Shown: piece by piece, positions 4,468-16,340 of the stretch
Position numbering within the stretch: position 1 is the stretch's first letter
Layout of the letters: every line of letters starts with the position of its first letter
From: Mediterraneibacter gnavus ATCC 29149
GTDB taxonomy: Bacteria; Bacillota; Clostridia; Lachnospirales; Lachnospiraceae
Direction of reading: 5' to 3'
Assembly (NCBI RefSeq): GCF_008121495.1
Contig: NZ_CP043051.1
Coordinates: 2,127,001-2,191,000 of the forward strand
DNA: 64,000 nucleotides
Translations under genes and position numbers: made by a program
The notes under the pieces: model-generated
Told to the model about the DNA's origin: nothing
Databases searched by the model: none
The model's input: the letters and a program-made list of their open reading frames with translations, nothing else

Positions 4468-7400
4468 ATGGCAGATAAGACGCAGAACGTCAAAACAAGG
4501 TTAAGTTTTGACGGAGAGGCAGAGTATAAAGCAGCCTGCAAGGAAATTAACAGCACCCTTAAAGTACTTAATTCTGAAATGAAACTTGTAACGGCTGAAT
4601 ATAAGGACAATGCAAGCAGCGTAGATGCGCTGAAAGCAAAGCAGACGGTACTACAGAAAACATACGACGAGCAGGCAAAAAAGGTAAAAGAAACCGAGGC
4701 GGCTTTAGAAAAATGTCGAAAGGCAACAGGAGACAATAGCGAAGAAAGTAAAAAACTTGAAACCCAGTTAAATTACCAGAAAGCAGCGCTTGTAAAGACA
4801 GAGCAGGAATTAGGCAAAACGACTGACGAAATGGAAAAAGCAGAAAAAGCCGCTGACGAAATGGGAAAGGAAATAAAAGACAGCGGGGAACAGGCAGACG
4901 ACGCAAAGGGAAAATTTTCTGGATTTACAAGCGTGCTAAGCGGAATGGGTACAGCGCTTAAAGCAGCAGCAGCGGCGACGGCGGCAGCAGTTGCGGGAGC
5001 GGCAACAGCCATAGGAGCGCTTACCACAAAAGCGATAGAGGGATACGCAGCACAGGAACAGCTTGTAGGCGGTGTAGAAACTCTTTTCAAAACGTCGTCT
5101 GATACGGTTGTTGGTTATGCAAACGACGCATATAAAACAGCCGGAATGTCTGCAAATGAGTACATGGAAACAGTTACCAGCTTTTCAGCGTCACTGCTTG
5201 CCAGTATGAATAATGATACGGCAGCGGCGGCAGAAAAGGCAAACGTGGCAATTACGGATATGTCAGACAATGCAAATAAAATGGGTACTGATATATCGCT
5301 TATACAGAACGCCTATAACGGTTTTGCAAAGCAGAATTATACCATGCTGGATAACTTAAAACTGGGATATGGCGGTACAAAAGAGGAAATGCAGCGACTG
5401 CTTGATGATGCAAGCAAGCTATCCGGCATTAAGTATGATATTTCATCATATTCAGACGTTGTAGACGCTATTCACGTCGTACAGACGGAAATGGGCATAA
5501 CAGGGACAACGGCAAAAGAGGCAAGTACAACAATAGAGGGTTCGGTTAGTTCTATGAGTTCAGCGTGGGACAACTGGGTAGCTGGAATGGCAGACAGCGA
5601 GGCGAATTTCTCACAGCTTACAAGCAATCTGGTAGACAGTATTGTAACAGTGGTAGGGAATATAGCACCGAGGGTAATAGAAACAGTGCCGAGGCTGGTA
5701 AGCGGACTGGGAGAAATCGTAGAGCAGCTTGCAACGTATATACCACAGGTTATACAGGAGTTATTACCGCCTTTAATGAGCGGCGTACAGGACTTGCTTA
5801 ATACGCTGGTTGGAATGCTGCCGGAAATGATAAGCATAATCGGGCAGATTATACCGACAATCATAGATACGCTGCTTACTATATTACCGCAGCTTTTAGA
5901 GGCAGGCGTACAGATTATTACGGAATTGGCGCAAGGTATCGCACAAGCGTTACCTACATTGCTGCCAACAATCGTAACGGTGGTTACGAACATTGTAACC
6001 ATGCTGATAGAAAATATACCGTTGCTGATTACAGCAGCATTACAGCTGCTTACGGGGCTGGCACAGGGGCTGGTAGCAGCGCTGCCCGTTCTGATTGAGG
6101 CACTGCCGGAAATCATAACGGCTATCATAAATGCACTGGTTGAGGGCATACCGCTTATTATCGAAAGTGCGGGCGATATTATAGTTGCATTGATCGACGG
6201 AATCATAGATGCAATACCGCTTTTAATCGCAGCCATACCGCAGATTATAGCAGCCATTGTAACAGGGCTGATTACGGGGCTACCTAAGATTTTGACGGCG
6301 GCAGGCAAGCTGGTAACGACAATCATAAATAAAATAAAAGAGCTACCTACTCTGATACCGCAGGCAATCGCTGCGGGCGTTGAGAAAATAGCAGAGTGGG
6401 GCACAAATATGCAGGAAAAAGGCGGCACAGTTATAACAGATTTTGTAACGAAAGTTATAGATATCGTTAAGGAACTGCCGCAGAAAATCTGGAACAGTAT
6501 AGTAAGCGCAGTAACCAGAGTGGCTACGTGGGGCGCAAATATGCAGACCAAAGCCAAAGAAGTAATGAACACAATGCTTACGAACATTGTAACGATTGTG
6601 AAAGAAACGCCTACTAAAATCTGGAACAGCATAGTAGGGGCAGTAACCAGAGTGGCTACGTGGGGCAACAATATGCTTACGAAAGCCAAAGAGGTAATGA
6701 ATGCCATGGTAACAGGCGTTATTACGATCGTTAAGGAACTGCCGCAGAAAATCTGGAACAGCATAGTAGGGGCAGTAACCAGAGTGGCTACGTGGGGCAA
6801 CAATATGCTTACGAAAGCCAAAGAGGTAATGAATGCCATGGTAACAGGCGTTATTACGATCGTTAAGGAACTGCCGCAGAAAATCTGGAACAGCATAGTA
6901 GGGGCAGTAACCAGAGTGGCTACGTGGGGCAACAATATGCTTACGAAAGCCAAAGAGGTAATGAATGCCATGGTAACGGGCATTGTTACGATTGTTAAGG
7001 AAATACCGCAAAAGATTTATAACAGCATTTCTGGTGCAATTACCAAAGTGGCTACATGGGGTACAGAAGTAAAGAACAAAGCCGTAGAGGGCATGAAAAA
7101 TGTAATTACTGGAATAACAGACGTATTTAAGAATATTGGCAGTACGTTTGCTGGGTTCGGTAAAAACATGGTAGAGGGCATCTGGAACGGCATAAACGGA
7201 GCTACGCAGTGGATAAAGGACAAAATAAGCGGCTGGGTAGGCAATGTTACCGACTTCCTTAAGGATTTATTTGGAATTGCCAGCCCGTCTAAGCTGATGC
7301 GTGACGAAATCGGCGTATATCTGGCGCAGGGTATCGGCGTTGGCTTTTCTAATGAAATCGGCGGCGTTAAGAAAATGATTGAGGACAGCGTACCGCAGGA

Positions 7401-8494: not shown

Positions 8495-9649
8495 ATGGAA
8501 CTTAGAGTATTCGACAAGACAGCACAGCCGCTGGGAGCTATAGACGAGCTGGCAAGCCTGCTATGGCATACAAAGTATTTTGACGTAGGAACTTTTAGCC
8601 TGCTTGCGCCGATTACGGACAATAACAGCCGTTTGCTGGTAGAGGGTAACTTAATAACCAAGCACGACGGAAAAAAGGAAGTAAAGACCGCTGACGGCGG
8701 CGTATGGCGCAGGGCAGCGCAGATAACCTACGTACACATTACCAAAGACGAGAACGGCTTAGAGCAGTTAGAGGCACAAGGCTATATGCTTAGCTGGTGG
8801 CTTAATAAGCGCTGCATTTATCCGCAGATTGTGGCGACAGGTACAAACCAGTATCTTATAAACCTTATGGTAAAGAACAACTGCGGCAGCGCAGCAGGAA
8901 CAAAGCGGCGTTTTCCATTGCTTACATTTCTGGCGCAGGAAACCATAGACGGCGTGGCGGTTGAATATGCAAACGAGGCATACGCACAACTGGGGCAGGA
9001 AGTAAAGGCAAGGGCGCAGGCTGGAAAGCTGGGCTATGACATTCTGCTTAACGAAAGAGAGAGACTGTTTGGCTTTTATCTGTATAAGGGCAATGACCTT
9101 ACAGCCACAAATACCGAGGGTAACACACCCTGCATATTTTCAAGAGATTTTGATAATGTCAACGAGCAGGAATATACAGCCAGTATAGAGAACTGCGGCA
9201 ACTTTATTTATGTGCAGGGAGCAGCTGACGACGACGGCAGCCAGCCAGTAACCACAGTGGACGGCGAGGGCGCAACGGGGCTGGATTTGGTAGAGGTATT
9301 CTGCGACGCTACGGACATTGCCAGAAAGTACCAGCAAGGGGAAACAGAGGTAACAATACCGCTGAATACCTATATTGCAATGCTGAAAACGAGAGGCAGC
9401 GCAGAGCTGGAAAACTACGGCAAGAACATAAATTTTGTAAGTACCATAAATACAAATTCAAACTTGAAATTTAAGGCTGATTTTGATTTAGGCGACCGTA
9501 TTACTTGCAAAGAAACCAAGTGGGGCATACAGATAGATGCACGTATTACAGAAGTAACAGAAACATACCAGAAAGGCGAGGAAACCATAGAGGCGACTTT
9601 TGGCGACAGCCTGCCGACGCTGGTAGACCAGATTAGGAAAGTGAGGTAG
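8495..9649 (+). CDS. Tail-tip protein, ReqiPepy6 Gp37-like family
   Basis: The 384-residue protein (MELRVFDKTAQPLGAIDELASLLW, GYMLSWWLNKRCIYPQ, GDRITCKETKWGIQIDARITEVTETY) matches the Gp37-like siphovirus tail protein family that takes the Tal-like position after Dit. It probably forms the tail-tip hub. No peptidoglycan hydrolase domain is visible. It starts 4 bases after the Dit gene and is followed 5 bases later by the next structural gene. Confidence 0.8.
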   Translation: MELRVFDKTAQPLGAIDELASLLWHTKYFDVGTFSLLAPITDNNSRLLVEGNLITKHDGKKEVKTADGGVWRRAAQITYVHITKDENGLEQLEAQGYMLSWWLNKRCIYPQIVATGTNQYLINLMVKNNCGSAAGTKRRFPLLTFLAQETIDGVAVEYANEAYAQLGQEVKARAQAGKLGYDILLNERERLFGFYLYKGNDLTATNTEGNTPCIFSRDFDNVNEQEYTASIENCGNFIYVQGAADDDGSQPVTTVDGEGATGLDLVEVFCDATDIARKYQQGETEVTIPLNTYIAMLKTRGSAELENYGKNINFVSTINTNSNLKFKADFDLGDRITCKETKWGIQIDARITEVTETYQKGEETIEATFGDSLPTLVDQIRKVR

Positions 9650-9654
9650 CAGAA

Positions 9655-10791
9655 ATGGCAAACAGCTTACCGTTTAATGCCGTGGCAGTAGACGGAGAGT
9701 ACGACAGGGTATATAAAGCCGAGGATTGGGCGTGGTACTTTGCTACTTTCATTGCAAACGGCATTTTTCCAAAGCCGAGCGACGGGCTACAGGTGGTAGC
9801 TTACAGCGGCATGGAAATAAGAGTAAATGCAGGCTATGCCTTTATAAACGGCTACGCCTTTAGAAATCCTGCAACGCTTAGCGTAACACTGGATACGGCA
9901 GAGGGAGCGCTTAACAGGGTGGACAGGGTAGTAGTTCGCTGGGATTTGCCGCAAAGAGATATGTATATTGCGGTGCTGAAAGGCACACCGTCTGCAAAGC
10001 CGACAGCAACGGCAGTAACCCGCACTACGGAAATATGGGAGCTTGCACTTGCAGATATTTACGTAGGCAAGGGCGTAACAAGGATACAGACGCAGAATAT
10101 CACAGACCAGCGGTTTAATAGCGCAGTCTGTGGCATTGTGACGGGAACGGTGGAAGAGATAGACGCAAGCGTGCTTACAAAGCAGTTTACGGACTTTTTC
10201 AACACCTACAGCGCAGCCGTGCTGGACGAGTTCAGCGCATATAAGCAGAGTATGGAAAAGTACCTTACAGAGATTGCGGGCGTATATGACAGCTACGTAA
10301 GCAAGACAGAGGGTTTATTTGCGCAGTATGAGAGCCAGTTTAACGAAAGATACAGCAGTTTTGAAAGTACACTTGATAACTGGGACAATGAGCTTTTAAG
10401 CGCCTATACAGACTTTATGGCAAAAATTAAGCTATTCCAGTCGGACGCTGAAAACGAATTTAACACATGGTTTGAGAGCATCAAGGACAAGCTGGGCGGG
10501 GACATAGCAGGCAGCCTGCAACTGCAAATTGAAGAGCTGGCAGCAGCCATGCAGGAAGTGAAAGAGCAGGCAGAGGCAGGCACGAAAGAAACCAAAGAGG
10601 CAATAGCAGCGCTGGACGAGCGGCTTAAGAGGGTAGAAAGCGGCTGGGGCATTGACTATAAGCATGACGCTGTACTGGGATTGTGCTACATGGGTGCAGC
10701 ATATATGAGCCAGCATTACGAAAGAACAGAAGAAACGGCAGTATTAGGGGCTACCTACGTGGGTAATTCCTATCTTGCAAATACATTTTAG
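9655..10791 (+). CDS. Baseplate/tail fibre protein with long helical stalk and C-terminal tag
   Basis: This 378-residue protein begins with a beta-rich domain of a kind common in lower baseplate genes of Gram-positive phages (NGIFPKPSDGLQVVAYSGMEIRVNAGYAFI, NRVDRVVVRWDLP). Residues about 180-335 are a long helical region (coiled coil). The last 45 residues carry two copies of a LGxxYxGxxY motif (LGLCYMGAAYM, LGATYVGNSYLANTF). It probably carries or anchors the receptor-binding proteins, including the DGR target encoded two genes downstream. Its exact role is inferred. Confidence 0.75.
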   Translation: MANSLPFNAVAVDGEYDRVYKAEDWAWYFATFIANGIFPKPSDGLQVVAYSGMEIRVNAGYAFINGYAFRNPATLSVTLDTAEGALNRVDRVVVRWDLPQRDMYIAVLKGTPSAKPTATAVTRTTEIWELALADIYVGKGVTRIQTQNITDQRFNSAVCGIVTGTVEEIDASVLTKQFTDFFNTYSAAVLDEFSAYKQSMEKYLTEIAGVYDSYVSKTEGLFAQYESQFNERYSSFESTLDNWDNELLSAYTDFMAKIKLFQSDAENEFNTWFESIKDKLGGDIAGSLQLQIEELAAAMQEVKEQAEAGTKETKEAIAALDERLKRVESGWGIDYKHDAVLGLCYMGAAYMSQHYERTEETAVLGATYVGNSYLANTF

Positions 10792-10805
10792 AAAGGCGGC
10801 AGACT

Positions 10806-11243
10806 ATGAAAGGGTTTCCAAAGGTATTAAAGACAAAAGAGGACTATTACAACTGCCTTGCTATGGTAGCAAGCGGAGAACTGGCAGCAGCAGACTTGCT
10901 GGCAAAAATCGAGAGCGCAGAGAACCAGCGCTATATTGAGTGCGGCGTAGCAGCTGTAGAGGAAGAGAAAAAGGCGGTTACGGTATATTACTGCGACGAG
11001 GCAGCAGTAGGCATGAAGTTTGTAGCGGGCAGCGTATCCGGCACGGTGCAGGGAGTAACACATATCCAGACTGACGAGGCAGCGGCAGCAGGAGAGGCAG
11101 GAAACGACAGAACAGCCCTCACGCTTTCCAAAGCAGTAAAAGCGGGCTGCACGGTAATTGCGCTGGAACGCACAGACACCGTGGCAGGAATGACAACAGA
11201 CGACATTGCAGCACTGAAAGGAGTATTAAAGCAGTATGAGTAG
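10806..11243 (+). CDS. Phage protein of unknown function preceding the DGR target
   Basis: The 145-residue protein starts MKGFPKVLKTKEDYYNCLAMV, has a short helical N-terminus and a beta-rich C-terminal part (TVYYCDEAAVGMKFVAGSVSG, GCTVIALERTDTVAGMTTDDI). It overlaps the DGR target by 8 bases, so the two are translated together. A role as chaperone or adaptor for the variable protein is plausible from this coupling only. I do not recognise the family. Confidence 0.7.
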   Translation: MKGFPKVLKTKEDYYNCLAMVASGELAAADLLAKIESAENQRYIECGVAAVEEEKKAVTVYYCDEAAVGMKFVAGSVSGTVQGVTHIQTDEAAAAGEAGNDRTALTLSKAVKAGCTVIALERTDTVAGMTTDDIAALKGVLKQYE

Positions 11244-12378
11244 ATTATTAGTGGACGACGTTACAAAGACAGACGCAAGGGCGCTTTTGAATGTAAATAA
11301 AATGGCTACAATCAGCGATATTGTAGCACCGAGCAACGAGTACATTTACGCCAGCGGAGCAAATGAGCTGACCGTAGTAGAGGGCTGCGTAATTGCCGTG
11401 GGTGGCGCTGGAATTTTCAAGACAGCAAATACCATTCTTACGGCTGCTAATCTGGACGCAGGCAGCGCTTTTGCGGTAGGTAAGGACTATTACGTATATA
11501 TCTGCGACAGCAGAATTGACAGCGCAGACGAGAAATACGTAATTTCCCTTAACTCTACATACCCGACAGGCTGGAACGCTACAAACAGCCGTAAAATCGG
11601 CGGCTTTCATTATGGACGCTGCCGCAAGGTGGACAGCAATTTACAGCCGCTTAATGGCAGCAGTGTTATTTTTGGCACTGGCTGGGAAAGTGCAGTAAGC
11701 AACGGCATTGTACCACGTTCTGTATGGACACTGGGACACCGCCCGAAATGCAGCCCAGAGGGTATGGTATATTTAGGCGGCGGCACATGGGTAGATATTT
11801 ACCTTAATTCTGACGACGGAGCAAAGGGCTTAAAATCAGAGTACGGCTGCGCACCTATGACGGGTACAGAAAGCATGAACTGGTACAACTTTGTAGAACG
11901 TCTGGCAAAGAGCGGTAAGCGCCTGCCGAACTATGCGGAGTTTTGCGCTTATGCTTTTGGCAGCCCTGCCGGACTGGATAACGCAAATACAAACGCATGG
12001 AGCGCCACCAGCAATACAGGCAGAGGCGTAACGGGCAGCGTAGTAAATGCCGTTTCTTCCGTGGGCGTTGTAGATACCGTGGGGCGTGTATGGGAATGGC
12101 TGGACGAGCTTATTACAAGAGCGGAACACGCAACAAATGCAGACTACCACGCAAGCGTAGCGTGGGGATGGGACAAGAAAAGCCCATTGAATACAGGCGA
12201 GAAGTCTTACGACGTTGGTAACATTTACCAGTATTACGCATATTCTCTGGCGGCGCTGATAGCGGGCGGCTACTGGTACGATGGGGCGAATTGCGGCGCT
12301 CGTGCCGTGGTTTGCGACGTTTACCCGTGGAGTGTCTCTGCGAACGTTGGCGCTCGTGGGGCGTGTGACTCTCTGTAG
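11236..12378 (+). CDS. DGR target: variable C-type-lectin-like receptor-binding protein
   Basis: This 380-residue protein ends in a formylglycine-generating-enzyme/C-type lectin-like domain: GRVWEWLDE at residues 283-291, then SLAALIAGGYW and a Cys/Trp-rich end (ARAVVCDVYPWSV...GARGACDSL). This is the fold used by DGR variable proteins such as Mtd. The last 42 codons are the variable repeat. Compared with the template, ten codons changed, mostly Asn to Tyr, Asp, Val or Ser. It is the last structural gene of the tail module, so it most likely forms the receptor-binding tip whose ligand surface is diversified. The N-terminal 250 residues presumably attach to the virion. Confidence 0.9.
   Translation: MSRLLVDDVTKTDARALLNVNKMATISDIVAPSNEYIYASGANELTVVEGCVIAVGGAGIFKTANTILTAANLDAGSAFAVGKDYYVYICDSRIDSADEKYVISLNSTYPTGWNATNSRKIGGFHYGRCRKVDSNLQPLNGSSVIFGTGWESAVSNGIVPRSVWTLGHRPKCSPEGMVYLGGGTWVDIYLNSDDGAKGLKSEYGCAPMTGTESMNWYNFVERLAKSGKRLPNYAEFCAYAFGSPAGLDNANTNAWSATSNTGRGVTGSVVNAVSSVGVVDTVGRVWEWLDELITRAEHATNADYHASVAWGWDKKSPLNTGEKSYDVGNIYQYYAYSLAALIAGGYWYDGANCGARAVVCDVYPWSVSANVGARGACDSL
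12245..12370 (+). repeat. DGR variable repeat (VR)
   Basis: The 126-bp segment at the 3' end of the target gene aligns without gaps to 12806-12931 (offset 561). There are 13 substitutions, and all 13 are at positions that are A in the template copy (A to T, G or C). No other base differs. The GC-rich 3' part (12350-12370) is unchanged, as expected for the initiation-of-mutagenic-homing (IMH) end. Confidence 0.97.
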
Positions 12379-12380
12379 AC

Positions 12381-12399
12381 GGCGGGCGAAAGCCCAGCC
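12381..12399 (+). promoter_or_regulatory. Hairpin with GAAA loop downstream of the VR
   Basis: Stem GGC+GGGC pairs with GCCC+GCC with one bulged A, closing a GAAA tetraloop. It starts 10 bases after the end of the VR. DGR target sites characterised in Bordetella phage BPP-1 need a short hairpin with a four-base loop just after the IMH end. The position and loop fit. Confidence 0.7.
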
Positions 12400-12418
12400 G
12401 GATAAACGGGGGTAAGGC

Positions 12419-12775
12419 ATGGACATACAGACAAAAACAGATATTATACACCAGAAAATATACGATTTTCTGCTATATATCTATCCTTTACTTGCAAAGT
12501 ATCCAAAGTTTGAAAAATTCAGTTTACAGACGGCGACCAGAAACGCAATTCTTGAAATGCTGCAAGAGGTTATAAAGTGGGATAAGACGGCGACGAAAAG
12601 CCACTTATACACGGTAGATACGGCATTGCAGGAAAGTAAAGAATTGCTGCGGCTGGCGCATGATTTGGAATATAGCGCCATGAACGCACGGCACTACGGC
12701 GAGAGCTGCCGCAAGCTGAAAGAAATAGGCGTTATGCTGGGCGAAATGATAGAAGAGGTAAAGACCAGAAAATAG
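12419..12775 (+). CDS. avd: DGR accessory variability determinant (Avd-like)
   Basis: The 118-residue, almost entirely helical protein (KIYDFLLYIYPLLAKYPKFEKF..., LLRLAHDLEYSAMNARHYGE) fits the Avd/four-helix-bundle family (related to 23S intervening-sequence proteins) found between target and template repeat in many DGRs. Avd forms a pentamer that binds the reverse transcriptase and template RNA and is needed for cDNA synthesis. It is intact here. It starts 40 bases after the target stop, beyond the hairpin, and ends 30 bases before the template repeat. Confidence 0.9.
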   Translation: MDIQTKTDIIHQKIYDFLLYIYPLLAKYPKFEKFSLQTATRNAILEMLQEVIKWDKTATKSHLYTVDTALQESKELLRLAHDLEYSAMNARHYGESCRKLKEIGVMLGEMIEEVKTRK

Positions 12776-13101
12776 CAGGATATGGGGCAGCTGCTTACTT
12801 ACAGCCTCTGGCGGCGCTGATAGCGGGCGGCAACTGGAACAATGGGGCGAATTGCGGCGCTCGTGCCGTGAATTGCAACAATTACCCGTGGAATGTCAAT
12901 ACGAACATTGGCGCTCGTGGGGCGTGTGACTTAGTGAGAACATTACAGGCACAGAGTTCTACGGAATACTGGCAAGGACTTAGAAAGGGATAAGACCGAG
13001 TGTTTAATATCCTATAGTCAGAGCGGCTGTCCCGCCGTGAGGCAAAGAGAAAAAATACGGCTGCTGGTTAGTAGCTACGGCGAAAGGCAGGAGCTTAATA
13101 C
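12776..13101 (+). ncRNA. DGR template RNA region
   Basis: The 326 bases between avd and the reverse transcriptase contain no convincing ORF. In known DGRs this interval is transcribed as the template RNA: the repeat itself plus a spacer of about 140 bases at its 3' side, both needed for priming and adenine mutagenesis. Here the spacer would be 12932-13101. The exact ends cannot be read from sequence. Confidence 0.6.
12806..12931 (+). repeat. DGR template repeat (TR)
   Basis: The 126-bp TR contains 26 adenines, mostly grouped as AAC or AAT triplets in the phase of the target gene, so that mutagenesis changes surface residues without making stop codons. Thirteen of the 26 are substituted in the VR. 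It lies 30 bases after avd and 170 bases before the reverse transcriptase. Confidence 0.97.
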
Positions 13102-14163
13102 TTGAAGAGAGTAGGATACATTACCGATAAGGACGGGCGGCACATTACGCTTTTAGAGGCTATGGGCGACTACGGAAACGTACAGAAAGCATATAACAAA
13201 GCCAGAAAGTGTAAGCGCCACAGAAAAGACGTACTGATTTTTACGAAAGATAAAGAGGAAAATTTAGACAAGGTGCGGGAAGATATTCTAAACCTTGCCT
13301 ATGAGCCGAGCGAATACCATTACTTTAAGGTGTACGAACCGAAAGAGCGGCAGATAATGGCACTGCCGTTCTATGACAGGGTGGTACAGCACGCCATAAA
13401 CAACGTGTTAGAGCCTATATTTGATAAGCGGTTTATATCGCAGTCTTACGCCTGCCGGAAAGGTAAAGGTATGCACGCTGCATCTGATACGCTAAAAGAG
13501 TGACTGTATGAGTGGAACAAATACCACCCAGACCAGCCACTTTATGCTATCAAGGCAGATATACACCACTATTTCCAGAGCATAGACCATGCGGTATTAA
13601 AGACTGAAATACGTAAGGTTATAAAAGACGCTGGGGTACTGGCATTGCTGGACAGGATAATAGACCACAACGGCAATATGCCGGACGGCGTAGGGATACC
13701 AGTGGGAAACCTTACCAGTCAGTTATTTGCAAATATCTATCTGGACGCATTAGACCAGTTTATTAAGCATGAGCTGGGCGTAGAGGCGTACATACGCTAT
13801 ATGGACGACTTTGTAATATTAAGCCCAGACAAGGAACAGCTGCGCAGCTGGCTTGCACGGATAGAGCAATTCTTACGGGAAGAGCTTAAGTTAGAGTTTA
13901 ACCCGAAAACTACCATACTGGCAGCAAAGAACGGTATAGACTTTGTAGGCTACAAACACAGGGCGACGCACAGGAAAGTACGAAAGGACAGCATAAAGCG
14001 TATAAAGCGTACTATCAAGAAGTGCGAGAGCGGGAAAATCACAAAAGAACAGTTACAAAAGAGTATACAGAGCTGGACGGGACACGCAGGACACGCCGAC
14101 AGCTATAACCTACGAAAGAAAATAGAAACGCTGGCAGAGGCAGCCATAGAAAAGGCTGCTTAA
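13102..14163 (+). pseudogene. DGR reverse transcriptase interrupted by in-frame TGA
   Basis: The frame from TTG 13102 (CAGGAG 8 bases upstream) to TAA 14161-14163 encodes a 353-codon DGR-type reverse transcriptase, the usual family length, but codon 134 is TGA (13501-13503). Before it lie the finger motifs (YHYFKVYEPKERQIMALPFYDR, SYACRKGKGMH). After it lie the first catalytic Asp region (YAIKADIHHYFQSIDH), the DGR hallmark VGNLTSQ (201-207) and YMDD (233-236). TGG to TGA is a one-base change, and Trp is plausible at this place. Other genes of this phage end in TGA (2914, 3237, 8490), so TGA is a stop here. Unless TGA is read through, the enzyme is dead. Confidence 0.92.
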
Positions 14164-14187
14164 GCGGCAAAATGCAGGAGCGAGTAC

Positions 14188-14367
14188 ATGAGTAGCAATT
14201 TATTAAGGGTGGTACAGGAACAACAGGAAACCATAGAAAAGCAAAGCAGGCTTATTGCTGATTTAATAGCCACTCTGGAAAGCTGGGAGCAGACAGCGGG
14301 CTACGACGGCGAAGAGCTGAAAGAGCGGGCAGAAAATTTGCAATTAAGAGAAAGGCAGGATTTATGA
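14188..14367 (+). CDS. Small phage protein upstream of holin
   Basis: This 59-residue hydrophilic, helical ORF (MSSNLLRVVQEQQETIEKQS...) has a ribosome binding site (AGGAG, 14176-14180) seven bases before the ATG, and its stop overlaps the holin ATG (ATGA). Small coiled-coil proteins of this kind are common just before holins in Firmicutes phages and often belong to the XkdX/hemolysin-XhlA-like neighbourhood, but this one has no membrane segment and I cannot name its family. Confidence 0.75.
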   Translation: MSSNLLRVVQEQQETIEKQSRLIADLIATLESWEQTAGYDGEELKERAENLQLRERQDL

Positions 14368-14852
14368 ACATGACTATTACAGAATTTATTGAGGCGGCGG
14401 CACATAACAAAATTATCCAGCTGGTAGTATTGGCGATTGTGTGCGACACGGTTTTTGGCGTGCTGCGTGCAATCAAAGAAAAGAAATTTAACAGCTGCGC
14501 AGGAATTGACGGGGCTATCAGAAAAGTAGGTATGCTTATTTCTCTGGTATTCATGCTGGCAATCGACGTACTGATTAAGATTAACTTAATCGGATTTATA
14601 CCGGAGCAGGCACGTACATATTTAGGGCTTGACACCGTGGGCGTGGCTGAATTTTTCGCATTGCTTTACATTGCCTATGAGGTAGTGAGTATTTTTAAGA
14701 ATATGGCATTATGTGGGTTGCCCGTAAAAAAGGTATGGGAAAAGGTACGGGAGTTTTTAGCAAAGTATACGGACGAGCTGCCGGACACAGACGAACTGGA
14801 CGGGGACAGCACCACAGGCAGCGTAGAGGAACACAGGACACAGGAAAGATAA
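14364..14852 (+). CDS. Phage holin (toxin secretion/phage lysis family)
   Basis: The 162-residue protein has three to four membrane segments (LVVLAIVCDTVFGVLRAI, ISLVFMLAIDVLI, FALLYIAYEVVSIF) and the D-T-V-F-G-V-L-R motif of the holin_4_1 family. It forms the membrane lesion that releases the endolysin. The C-terminal 50 residues are charged and cytoplasmic. It overlaps the small gene before it by 4 bases and lies 78 bases before the endolysin start. Confidence 0.9.
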   Translation: MNMTITEFIEAAAHNKIIQLVVLAIVCDTVFGVLRAIKEKKFNSCAGIDGAIRKVGMLISLVFMLAIDVLIKINLIGFIPEQARTYLGLDTVGVAEFFALLYIAYEVVSIFKNMALCGLPVKKVWEKVREFLAKYTDELPDTDELDGDSTTGSVEEHRTQER

Positions 14853-14930
14853 GGATAATAAGGACATAGCAGCAAAGAGCGCTTGCGGGACACCGCAGGC
14901 GCTTATTTTGTATGCGGAAAGGCGGGAAAC

Positions 14931-16340
14931 ATGAAAATTAACAGAATGATAAGCGGGTACAATTTCAACAAGGGCAGCATTTCCAGAATTAAGTATATTG
15001 TTATCCATTACGTAGGCGCACTGGGCGGCGCAGAGGATAACTGCCGCTATTATGGCGGCGGCAATAGAAATGCGTCGGCGCATTACTTTGTAGGATTTAA
15101 CGGCGAGGTATGGCAGTGCGTAGAGGACGCTAATATAGCGTGGCATTGCGGAGCGTCGAGCTATAAGCACGCAGAGTGCCGGAACGCTAATAGTATCGGT
15201 ATTGAAATGTGCGTAAGGAAGAAAAACACAAAGAGCATGGGCGCAACAGATAAAGACTGGTATTTTGAGGACGCAACAGTAGAGGCAGCGGCAGAGCTTA
15301 CCCGTTACCTTATGAATAAATACGGCGTGCCTGCATCTCATGTAATCAGACATTACGACGTAACGGGCAAGATTTGCCCTAACCCGTATGTATATAACAC
15401 CAGCGCCCACACATGGGACGAGTTTAAGCGTAAAATCAGCGGACAGGCAGAAACACCGCAGGGCAGCAATGAAAAAATAATCTGGAATTTTCTTACAGGC
15501 AAGGGCTTAAATGCTTATGCCGTGGCTGGTATTATGGGTAATCTGTATGCTGAAAGCGGGCTTATGCCGAACAACTTACAGAACACCTATAACAATAAGC
15601 TGGGTAAGACGGACGCAGAATATACAGCGGCGGTGGATAATGGCAGTTATGGCAATTTTGTAAAGGACAGTGCAGGCTATGGGCTGGCGCAGTGGACGTA
15701 TTGGAGCAGAAAGCAGGCGCTGCTTAATCATGCAAAACAGGCGGGCGTATCCATTGCAGACCTTAATATGCAGCTGGGCTTTTTATGGGAAGAATTACAG
15801 GGCTACACAGTAGTAATGGACGCACTGAAAAAGGCAGGCAGCGTGCGTGCTGCATCTGATGCCGTTCTTACTGGATATGAAAAGCCAGCAGACCAGAGCG
15901 AAACAGTAAAGAAAAAGCGTGCAGAGTACGGCGAGGGATACTATAAAAAGTATGCAGCCGGAAACGGCACAAAATATTACAGAGTGCGCAAGAGCTGGAC
16001 GGACGCAGCAAGCCAGCTGGGGGCGTTTACGTCGCTGGAAAATGCAAAGAGCGCTTGCAAGGCAGGCTATACTGTATATGATGATAACGGCAAGGCAGTA
16101 TATACCGCAGCGGGGCAGCAGGCAAGCGCAGGCGTTCCGTTTAGCGTACAGGTGGATATTTTAGACCTTAATATCAGAACGGGAGCAGGCACAAACTATG
16201 CAAAGACAGGAGAAACCACAGGAAAGGGAGTATTTACCATTATGGAAGTGAAAGCCGGACAGGGCGCAAGTGCTGGCTGGGGACGCTTGAAGAGTGGCGC
16301 AGGCTGGATTAGCTTAGATTATGCCACAAGATTAGCTTAA
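14931..16340 (+). CDS. Endolysin with amidase and phage-lysozyme domains and SH3 end
   Basis: This is a 469-residue lysin. Residues about 15-170 are an N-acetylmuramoyl-L-alanine amidase (Amidase_2) domain with zinc ligands in YIVIHYVG and VIRHYDVTGKICP. Residues about 180-345 are a phage tail lysozyme-type glycosidase domain with probable catalytic Glu208 in LYAESGLMPNN and GYGLAQWTYW. A short SPOR-like segment follows (LGAFTSLENAKSACKAGYTVY), then an SH3b cell-wall binding domain (LNIRTGAGTNYAKTG). I chose ATG 14931 (AAAGGCGGG upstream); the frame is open to a TTG at 14883 that lacks a ribosome binding site. Two catalytic activities in one phage lysin are uncommon but known. Confidence 0.9.
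   Translation: MKINRMISGYNFNKGSISRIKYIVIHYVGALGGAEDNCRYYGGGNRNASAHYFVGFNGEVWQCVEDANIAWHCGASSYKHAECRNANSIGIEMCVRKKNTKSMGATDKDWYFEDATVEAAAELTRYLMNKYGVPASHVIRHYDVTGKICPNPYVYNTSAHTWDEFKRKISGQAETPQGSNEKIIWNFLTGKGLNAYAVAGIMGNLYAESGLMPNNLQNTYNNKLGKTDAEYTAAVDNGSYGNFVKDSAGYGLAQWTYWSRKQALLNHAKQAGVSIADLNMQLGFLWEELQGYTVVMDALKKAGSVRAASDAVLTGYEKPADQSETVKKKRAEYGEGYYKKYAAGNGTKYYRVRKSWTDAASQLGAFTSLENAKSACKAGYTVYDDNGKAVYTAAGQQASAGVPFSVQVDILDLNIRTGAGTNYAKTGETTGKGVFTIMEVKAGQGASAGWGRLKSGAGWISLDYATRLA

What the first reader, a model, noticed from the sequence alone, without database searches (positions are those of the whole stretch)
11236..14163. Complete DGR architecture in a Lachnospiraceae prophage, with adenine-only VR/TR differences
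Target gene, hairpin, avd, template repeat and reverse transcriptase are present in the order of known DGRs. The 126-bp VR and TR align without gaps at an offset of 561 bases. There are 13 differences, all at template adenines (13 of 26), and no other base differs. Ten codons of the receptor-binding protein have changed, mostly from Asn. This is direct evidence of past retrohoming and of a phage that diversifies its adhesin.
Basis: partly seen in the sequence, partly recalled or inferred. Interest (0 to 1): 0.88.

Follow-up and report, generated by a model that had tools for sequence, protein, structure and literature searches.

The report
Phage tail-fibre diversifier, its enzyme interrupted
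A virus dormant in a gut bacterium carries a known kind of machine that rewrites the tip of its own host-binding protein, and the machine clearly worked in the past, but in this copy the gene for its copying enzyme contains a premature stop, so it is probably switched off now.

Summary
The DGR is real. VR 12245-12370 and TR 12806-12931 align without gaps (offset 561); all 13 differences fall on TR adenines (13 of 26; 0 of 100 other bases; P = 6e-11). The target is a homologue of BPP-1 Mtd; Avd and the hairpin are present. In 31 distinct VR/TR pairs of this prophage family 376 of 805 adenines differ against 16 of 3043 other bases. A prophage in another genus (L013) has an identical TR and near-identical flanks, yet its VR differs at 16 of 26 adenines and 0 of 100 other sites.

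Of 37 family loci checked, 34 keep the frame open, two are cut by contig ends, one (L023) has its own stop. Both RT pieces still show purifying selection, so the stop is recent, read through, or a sequencing error. Best reading: a BPP-1-type DGR, recently silenced in this copy. An RT-dead DGR prophage is on record (proACA1-A, PMC10612066), so novelty is low.

In passing: a second DGR with open RT in the same genome; Patescibacteria DGR RTs with tracts suggesting phase variation.

The parts
11236..12378 (+). [quoted passage not shown]
   Evidence: Pfam mtd_2nd PF21916 E 2.6e-42; PDB 1yu4 Mtd E 7.4e-24, and 1yu1 over residues 44-380; PHROG 11262 tail protein E 4e-101
12245..12370 (+). variable repeat (VR) at the 3' end of the target gene
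   Evidence: 13 of 26 TR-A positions differ, 0 of 100 others
12347..12370 (+). nearly invariant 3' end of the VR, at the place of the IMH of known DGRs
   Evidence: its one A is unchanged in 17 of 17 same-register pairs; one of the 17 (L017) differs at the last base, a T; IMH role inferred from BPP-1 (recalled)
12380..12400 (.). hairpin just after the target stop codon: 8 bp, one bulge, GAAA loop
   Evidence: DNA fold -9.9 kcal/mol, z -2.4, 4 of 200 shuffles as good (L098 and L116 weaker, z -1.6 and -1.5); 7-bp core kept in 16 of 16 aligned sequences, window included, with one pair changed on both sides in L098 and L102
12419..12775 (+). avd, accessory variability determinant, 118 aa
   Evidence: Pfam bAvd PF22296 E 2e-20; PHROG 3206 'Avd protein of DGR' E 9e-31
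12806..12931 (+). template repeat (TR)
   Evidence: 126 nt, 26 A; identical to the TR of L013
12932..13101 (+). spacer between TR and RT, probably part of the template RNA
   Evidence: 0 differences of 169 positions (12932-13100) to L013; function inferred; no Rfam match up to E 0.1
13102..13503 (+). reverse transcriptase, first piece (133 codons), ending in an in-frame TGA at 13501-13503
   Evidence: PHROG 1423 E 2e-47; stop
13504..14163 (+). reverse transcriptase, second piece (219 codons), same frame; catalytic motifs at 13552-13563 and 13798-13809; first ATG/GTG/TTG only at 13645, past the first motif
   Evidence: RVT_1 E 2e-14, PHROG 1423 E 6e-89, motif coordinates
13483..13494 (.). point where near-identity to the L013 prophage ends
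   Evidence: 2 differences of 381 in 13102-13482, then 57 of 217 in 13483-13699

Best explanation
This is a phage-borne, BPP-1-type diversity-generating retroelement. RT and Avd copy the TR RNA with errors at adenines, and the mutated cDNA replaces the VR, so the C-terminal face of the Mtd-like tail protein changes while TR and scaffold stay fixed. The sequence shows the anatomy, the adenine-only footprint and the family-wide VR variation. The biochemistry (priming, Avd binding, IMH and hairpin use) is inferred from BPP-1. In this copy the RT frame is cut by TGA at codon 134, before both catalytic motifs, so the element is most likely silent now and the current VR fixed. The stop is recent.
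For: Adenine-only VR/TR; 31 distinct pairs with 376 of 805 A against 16 of 3043 non-A changed; L013 with identical TR, 0 of 1001 differences in 9500-10500 and 5 of 1745 in 10500-12244, but a VR differing at 16 of 26 A and 0 of 100 others; Mtd, bAvd and RT homology; hairpin. Stop. Of 37 family loci checked, 34 are open across the region, L010 and L090 are cut by contig ends, and L023 has its own stop. Recent: pN/pS of the two RT pieces is 0.02-0.12 against L006, L086, L087 and L007, and 0.10-0.26 against L013, L009 and L017; no lesion seen in target, avd or TR; VR and TR have no non-A difference.
Against: No reads or second isolate of this strain: the TGA could be a sequencing error. UGA can be leaky in Firmicutes (recalled), so some RT could still be made. 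Purifying selection on both pieces equally fits a working gene.
Confidence: 0.78

Rival explanations
1. The DGR is fully active: the TGA is a sequencing or assembly error, or is read through often enough.
For: Both RT pieces are under purifying selection. No other lesion was seen in target, avd or TR. VR and TR have no non-A difference. The 25-nt stop context has 0 exact matches in viral contigs (genome contigs was not scanned with it), so no independent copy of the stop is known.
Against: The genome is one contig, rated 100% complete. The lesion is a substitution-type stop, not an indel as is typical of long-read errors (recalled). The other three RVT_1 matches in the genome are open.
Confidence: 0.17
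2. The interrupted element is served in trans by another RT, for example that of the second DGR in the same genome or of a co-infecting phage.
For: A second DGR with an open 381-aa RT lies at 350684-351829 of the same chromosome.
Against: The second RT piece is 30% identical to it over 214 residues. The window's TR region found no match in the second DGR. No Avd match was found among the four L175 proteins scanned. DGR RTs act on their own structured template RNA (recalled).
Confidence: 0.04
3. The RT works as two pieces, the second restarted just after the stop at a non-standard codon.
For: The frame is open for 219 codons after the TGA and a CTG follows it directly.
Against: The first usual start (TTG 13645) lies past the first catalytic motif at 13552-13563. 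CTG is a poor start (recalled). Among the 37 family loci only L023 has a stop inside RT.
Confidence: 0.02

Closest known systems
Bordetella phage BPP-1 DGR (mtd, avd, TR, brt)
   Same: Mtd-type target (1yu4 E 7e-24); bAvd family; best PDB match of the family RT profile is 8ub7, 'Reverse transcriptase', E 1e-63 (that this is the BPP-1 enzyme is recalled); adenine-only changes; phage tail position. Gene order as in BPP-1 (recalled).
   Different: Target about 30% identical to Mtd of BPP-1 and relatives; RT second piece 41% identical to brt, and nearer (50%) to that of Aeromonas phage phiARM81mr; siphovirus-like Lachnospiraceae prophage; RT interrupted here.
Pseudoalteromonas prophage proACA1-A against phage ACA1 (PMC10612066; passages read)
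   Same: Prophage with DGR, hypervariable VR and a broken RT, called 'presumably no longer functional' by its authors; in the 5.6 kb compared I found a 1-nt deletion in RT and 20 of the 22 differences in the target gene.
   Different: Frameshift at codon 318 instead of a TGA at codon 134; P2-like phage; a near-identical phage with intact RT is in hand.
The same prophage family in other Lachnospiraceae (L006 GAM79, L013 Faecalicatena faecalis, L017 An196, L086 IMG/VR and others)
   Same: Same cassette, about 71-97% DNA identity, TR with 24-29 A (17 in L023).
   Different: RT frame open in 34 of 37 loci checked; L010 and L090 cut by contig ends; L023 has its own stop.

Membership tests
Diversity-generating retroelement | TR/VR near-repeat whose mismatches fall on TR adenines | tested here: met
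   13 of 13 differences at A; family 376 of 805 A against 16 of 3043 non-A
Diversity-generating retroelement | VR at the 3' end of a target gene with a C-type-lectin-type binding domain | tested here: met
   VR ends 8 nt before the target's end; Mtd homology through residue 380 (1yu1). Fold itself not shown: AlphaFold model pLDDT 31.5, unusable
Diversity-generating retroelement | DGR-clade reverse transcriptase, complete and functional | tested here: not met
   Both pieces match PHROG 1423, and the family profile matches 8ub7 best, but the frame is cut by TGA. Relatedness met, intactness not; activity not testable here; no RT tree was built
Diversity-generating retroelement | accessory protein (Avd) | tested here: met
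   PF22296 E 2e-20; PHROG 3206
Diversity-generating retroelement | IMH and hairpin downstream of VR | tested here: met
   hairpin 12380-12400, core kept in 16 of 16 aligned sequences, one pair changed on both sides in two; IMH inferred from the nearly invariant 3' end
Diversity-generating retroelement | ongoing retrohoming | not testable with these tools
   needs reads or culture

The most novel reading that the evidence does not exclude
Hypermutation is itself switched in DGRs. The RT segment just before the first catalytic motif is a recurrent interruption site: TGA at codon 134 here, TGA at position 138 in L023, and frame-shifting simple-sequence tracts at about positions 135-143 in seven distant RTs. 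The window's TGA would then be a selected off state that locks a successful adhesin, not plain decay.
Probability: 0.06. Interest if true: 0.72.

Novelty: new member of a known kind. Interest (0 to 1): 0.36.

Why it matters
It gives a clean natural pair (window and L013: identical TR, near-identical flanks, freely differing VR, two genera) showing DGR-driven change of a tail-tip protein in gut prophages. It also corrects the claim of a complete element: this copy looks frozen, which makes it a natural test of what a lysogen's VR does once the RT is lost. DGR surveys that count RT genes without checking the frame would miscall such copies.

Tried and rejected
Rejected or led nowhere: (1) G442's '2 TGA' RT: both stops align to positions 14-15 of the family RT, probably before this RT's start, so I do not count it. 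(2) L103's stop: its match begins only at residue 180, so the contig probably joins something else there; not counted. (3) L083's stop lies at position 344, the C-terminal end. (4) The 25-nt stop context in viral contigs: 0 exact matches. (5) A second VR elsewhere in the genome: only two 19-22 nt matches of E 0.16 and 0.30. (6) Rfam on 10500-15000: no match up to E 0.1. (7) AlphaFold of the target with 16 rows: pLDDT 31.5, so no fold search was run. (8) att sites: longest direct repeat 18 nt, not convincing; no phage integrase among the proteins scanned, though 17801-18862 matches a PHROG 'transposase' of the integration class, E 1e-144. (9) GA-tract pattern in viral contigs: 0 matches. (10) The L013 breakpoint 7 to 18 nt before the stop: probably L013's own recombination, since L006, L086 and L007 stay 96-99% identical from 13050 to 14250; left as a coincidence. 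(11) Results against a simple adenine rule: 14 of 31 pairs have at least one non-A difference, L092's 3' end not counted (cut to 116 nt; it held 9 non-A differences after a likely indel); T to G at TR position 16 recurs in 6 pairs (L006, L008, L012, L024, L087, L093), perhaps the edge of the replaced tract. The offset of each pair was chosen to maximise matches with TR adenines left free, which leans slightly towards the rule. Five of the 37 family loci had no usable pair (L007, L010, L090, L097, L100), and two duplicate pairs (L095, L096) were dropped. (12) In one search two of the eleven added query proteins came out empty or 8 aa long through a strand slip (L205, L198); the other twenty queries carried the search.
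Full report
Observation. The repeat pair is as described. VR 12245-12370 and TR 12806-12931 align without gaps at offset 561; 13 positions differ, all at A in the TR (13 of 26; 0 of 100 others), hypergeometric P = 6.1e-11. Apart from itself and the VR, the TR region has only two matches of 19-22 nt (E 0.16 and 0.30) in the 3.55-Mb chromosome. Ten codons change, eight of them from Asn. The genome search also flags one TGA inside this RT, and none in the other three RVT_1 matches of the genome.

Parts. The target is an Mtd homologue: Pfam mtd_2nd E 2.6e-42; six Mtd chains in the PDB, E 7e-24 to 4e-20, three of them aligned to residue 379 or 380, that is through the VR. Avd matches bAvd. A hairpin with GAAA loop follows the target stop; its core is kept in 16 of 16 aligned sequences, window included, and in L098 and L102 one pair changed on both sides. 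Neighbours are Dit, a Gp37-like minor tail protein, a structural protein, holin, and an amidase/lysozyme; the 145-aa gene just before the target had no match. Terminase, portal and a replication protein lie upstream of the window. So the cassette sits in the tail-tip and lysis region of a prophage. Its edges were not settled.

Host. The host family is Lachnospiraceae by inference: the contigs of L013 and L017 reappear, by length and (L013) by RT position, as 'same family, other genus' in the search of 397 family genomes.

Relatives. Searching with the second RT piece gave the best 80 loci (of 274 candidates each time) in genome contigs and in viral contigs. In 33 VR/TR pairs, window included (31 distinct), 376 of 805 A cells differ against 16 of 3043 other cells, L092's 3' end excluded; 17 of 31 pairs have no non-A difference. 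L013 (Faecalicatena faecalis) is the strongest case. It has an identical TR, 0 of 1001 differences at 9500-10500, 5 of 1745 at 10500-12244, 9 differences clustered in avd, and 18 of 997 further left at 8504-9500; yet its VR differs from the window's at 16 of 26 A and 0 of 100 others.

The interrupted RT. Both catalytic motifs (13552-13563, 13798-13809) lie after the stop; the first ATG, GTG or TTG in frame is 13645, past the first motif. Of 37 family loci, 34 are open across the region, two are cut by contig ends (L010, L090), and one (L023) has its own TGA four codons further. Of 175 RT loci scanned, some of them the same contig twice, 159 were open, 7 cut by contig ends, and 9 flagged. Of these 9, one is the window itself, one is L023, four are tract loci (below), and three I do not count as interior stops (L083, L103, L190). 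In 397 family genomes, 14 had a match at E <= 1e-60 and two were flagged; I count only the window's. The two RT pieces show pN/pS 0.02-0.12 against L006, L086, L087 and L007, like avd (0.09-0.11) and holin (0-0.09); against L013, L009 and L017 the values are 0.10-0.26, some from very few changes. The stop is therefore recent, or tolerated, or an error; I cannot separate these without reads. An RT-dead DGR prophage is on record: proACA1-A, whose authors call the RT presumably no longer functional (PMC10612066, passages; my comparison).

Mechanism. Shown: anatomy, adenine-only footprint, repeated VR replacement within the family, interrupted frame. Inferred from BPP-1 (recalled): RNA-templated mutagenic cDNA synthesis by RT with Avd, retrohoming guided by IMH and hairpin, change of tropism. 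Most likely state now: silent, with the present VR fixed until the cassette is exchanged by recombination.

Template erosion. L023, the other relative with a stop in RT, has a TR with 17 A instead of 24-29; against L021 it lost 9 of 26 A but changed only 5 of 98 other sites (P = 2e-4). L007's TR differs from the window's at 5 of 26 A and 0 of 100 others (P = 3e-4). As a control, the TRs of seven other relatives differ from the window's at 0-2 of 26 A and 0-13 of 100 others, with no excess at A. L023 and L007 look as if mutated copy had entered the TR itself. L007 is a MAG contig that begins near the TR, so mis-assembly from VR reads is possible.

Side findings. (a) A second DGR at 350.7-354.2 kb of the same chromosome: a 381-aa open RT, a 625-aa tail-fibre target, and a 112-nt VR/TR with 13 of 25 A changed; the 112 nt were delimited by the first non-A mismatch on either side. 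(b) Four distant RTs (L043, L045, L051, L063) shift frame at a GA or G tract just before the first catalytic motif. In the phylum of L043, 109 of 379 genomes had an RT match at E <= 1e-25. In 30 of the fetched loci (the query's own, known to bear a tract, plus the 29 best others) there were 20 tracts in 32.6 kb of RT with 75 nt of leader, against 3 in 70.9 kb of flank (P = 6e-8); 19 of the 30 have at least one. The first two scans had 4 in 89.1 kb of RT (the four named) against 33 in 619 kb outside, and 0 in 89.2 kb against 14 in 538 kb. Of 49 loci examined, 13 had two frames, each with a tract by the junction; all 13 are among 18 that I had fetched because their open frames were short, and the other five of the 18 had a single match and no tract. 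Five more of the 49 showed stops without a frame change (L207, L217, L220, L221, L245), not followed up. Tracts in the body of RT lie at two places in the family numbering: about 135-143 in seven loci (frame broken in all seven) and about 186-201 in twelve (L205 and L222 in frame, ten broken). Some 5' tracts lie before or beside a downstream start codon and may act in the leader. Of 35 tract loci, 29 carry an A-specific TR/VR-like pair, against 3 with C and 3 with G as the test base. This reads as slipped-strand phase variation of DGR reverse transcriptases; length variation within one population was not seen or tested. In the listings (some capped) no title names it, nor do the passages I read in PMC11792537, PMC10053308, PMC6851277 and PMC8144416; most subscription papers are not held.

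Noticed in passing
L043, L045, L051, L063; L200-L225 and L228-L242 (DGR loci of Patescibacteria and kin): DGR reverse transcriptases with simple-sequence tracts (G8-10 near the 5' end; GA/CT/GT/AC repeats at about RT positions 135-143 or 186-201), in frame in some loci and frame-breaking in others: looks like phase variation of the RT. No title naming it in the listings.
   Followed up: partly
L175 4685-8168 (- strand), chromosome 350684-354167: A second DGR in the same genome: open 381-aa RT, 625-aa tail-fibre target, 112-nt VR/TR with 13 of 25 A changed.
   Followed up: yes
L023 4301-4424 (TR), RT stop at 5010: The other relative with a TGA in RT also has an adenine-poor TR (17 A; 9 of 26 A lost against L021, 5 of 98 other sites changed): a template apparently overwritten by mutated copy.
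   Followed up: partly
L007 107-232: TR differs from the window's TR at 5 adenines and nowhere else; template self-mutation or MAG mis-assembly.
   Followed up: no
window 13483-13503 against L013: Near-identity to the L013 prophage ends 7 to 18 nt before the premature stop, inside RT.
   Followed up: partly
window 12481-12514 against L013: Nine differences clustered in 34 nt of avd within otherwise near-identical sequence: a small recombined or converted patch.
   Followed up: no
TR/VR position 16 in L006, L008, L012, L024, L087, L093: A recurrent non-adenine VR difference (T to G): perhaps the 5' limit of the replaced tract.
   Followed up: no
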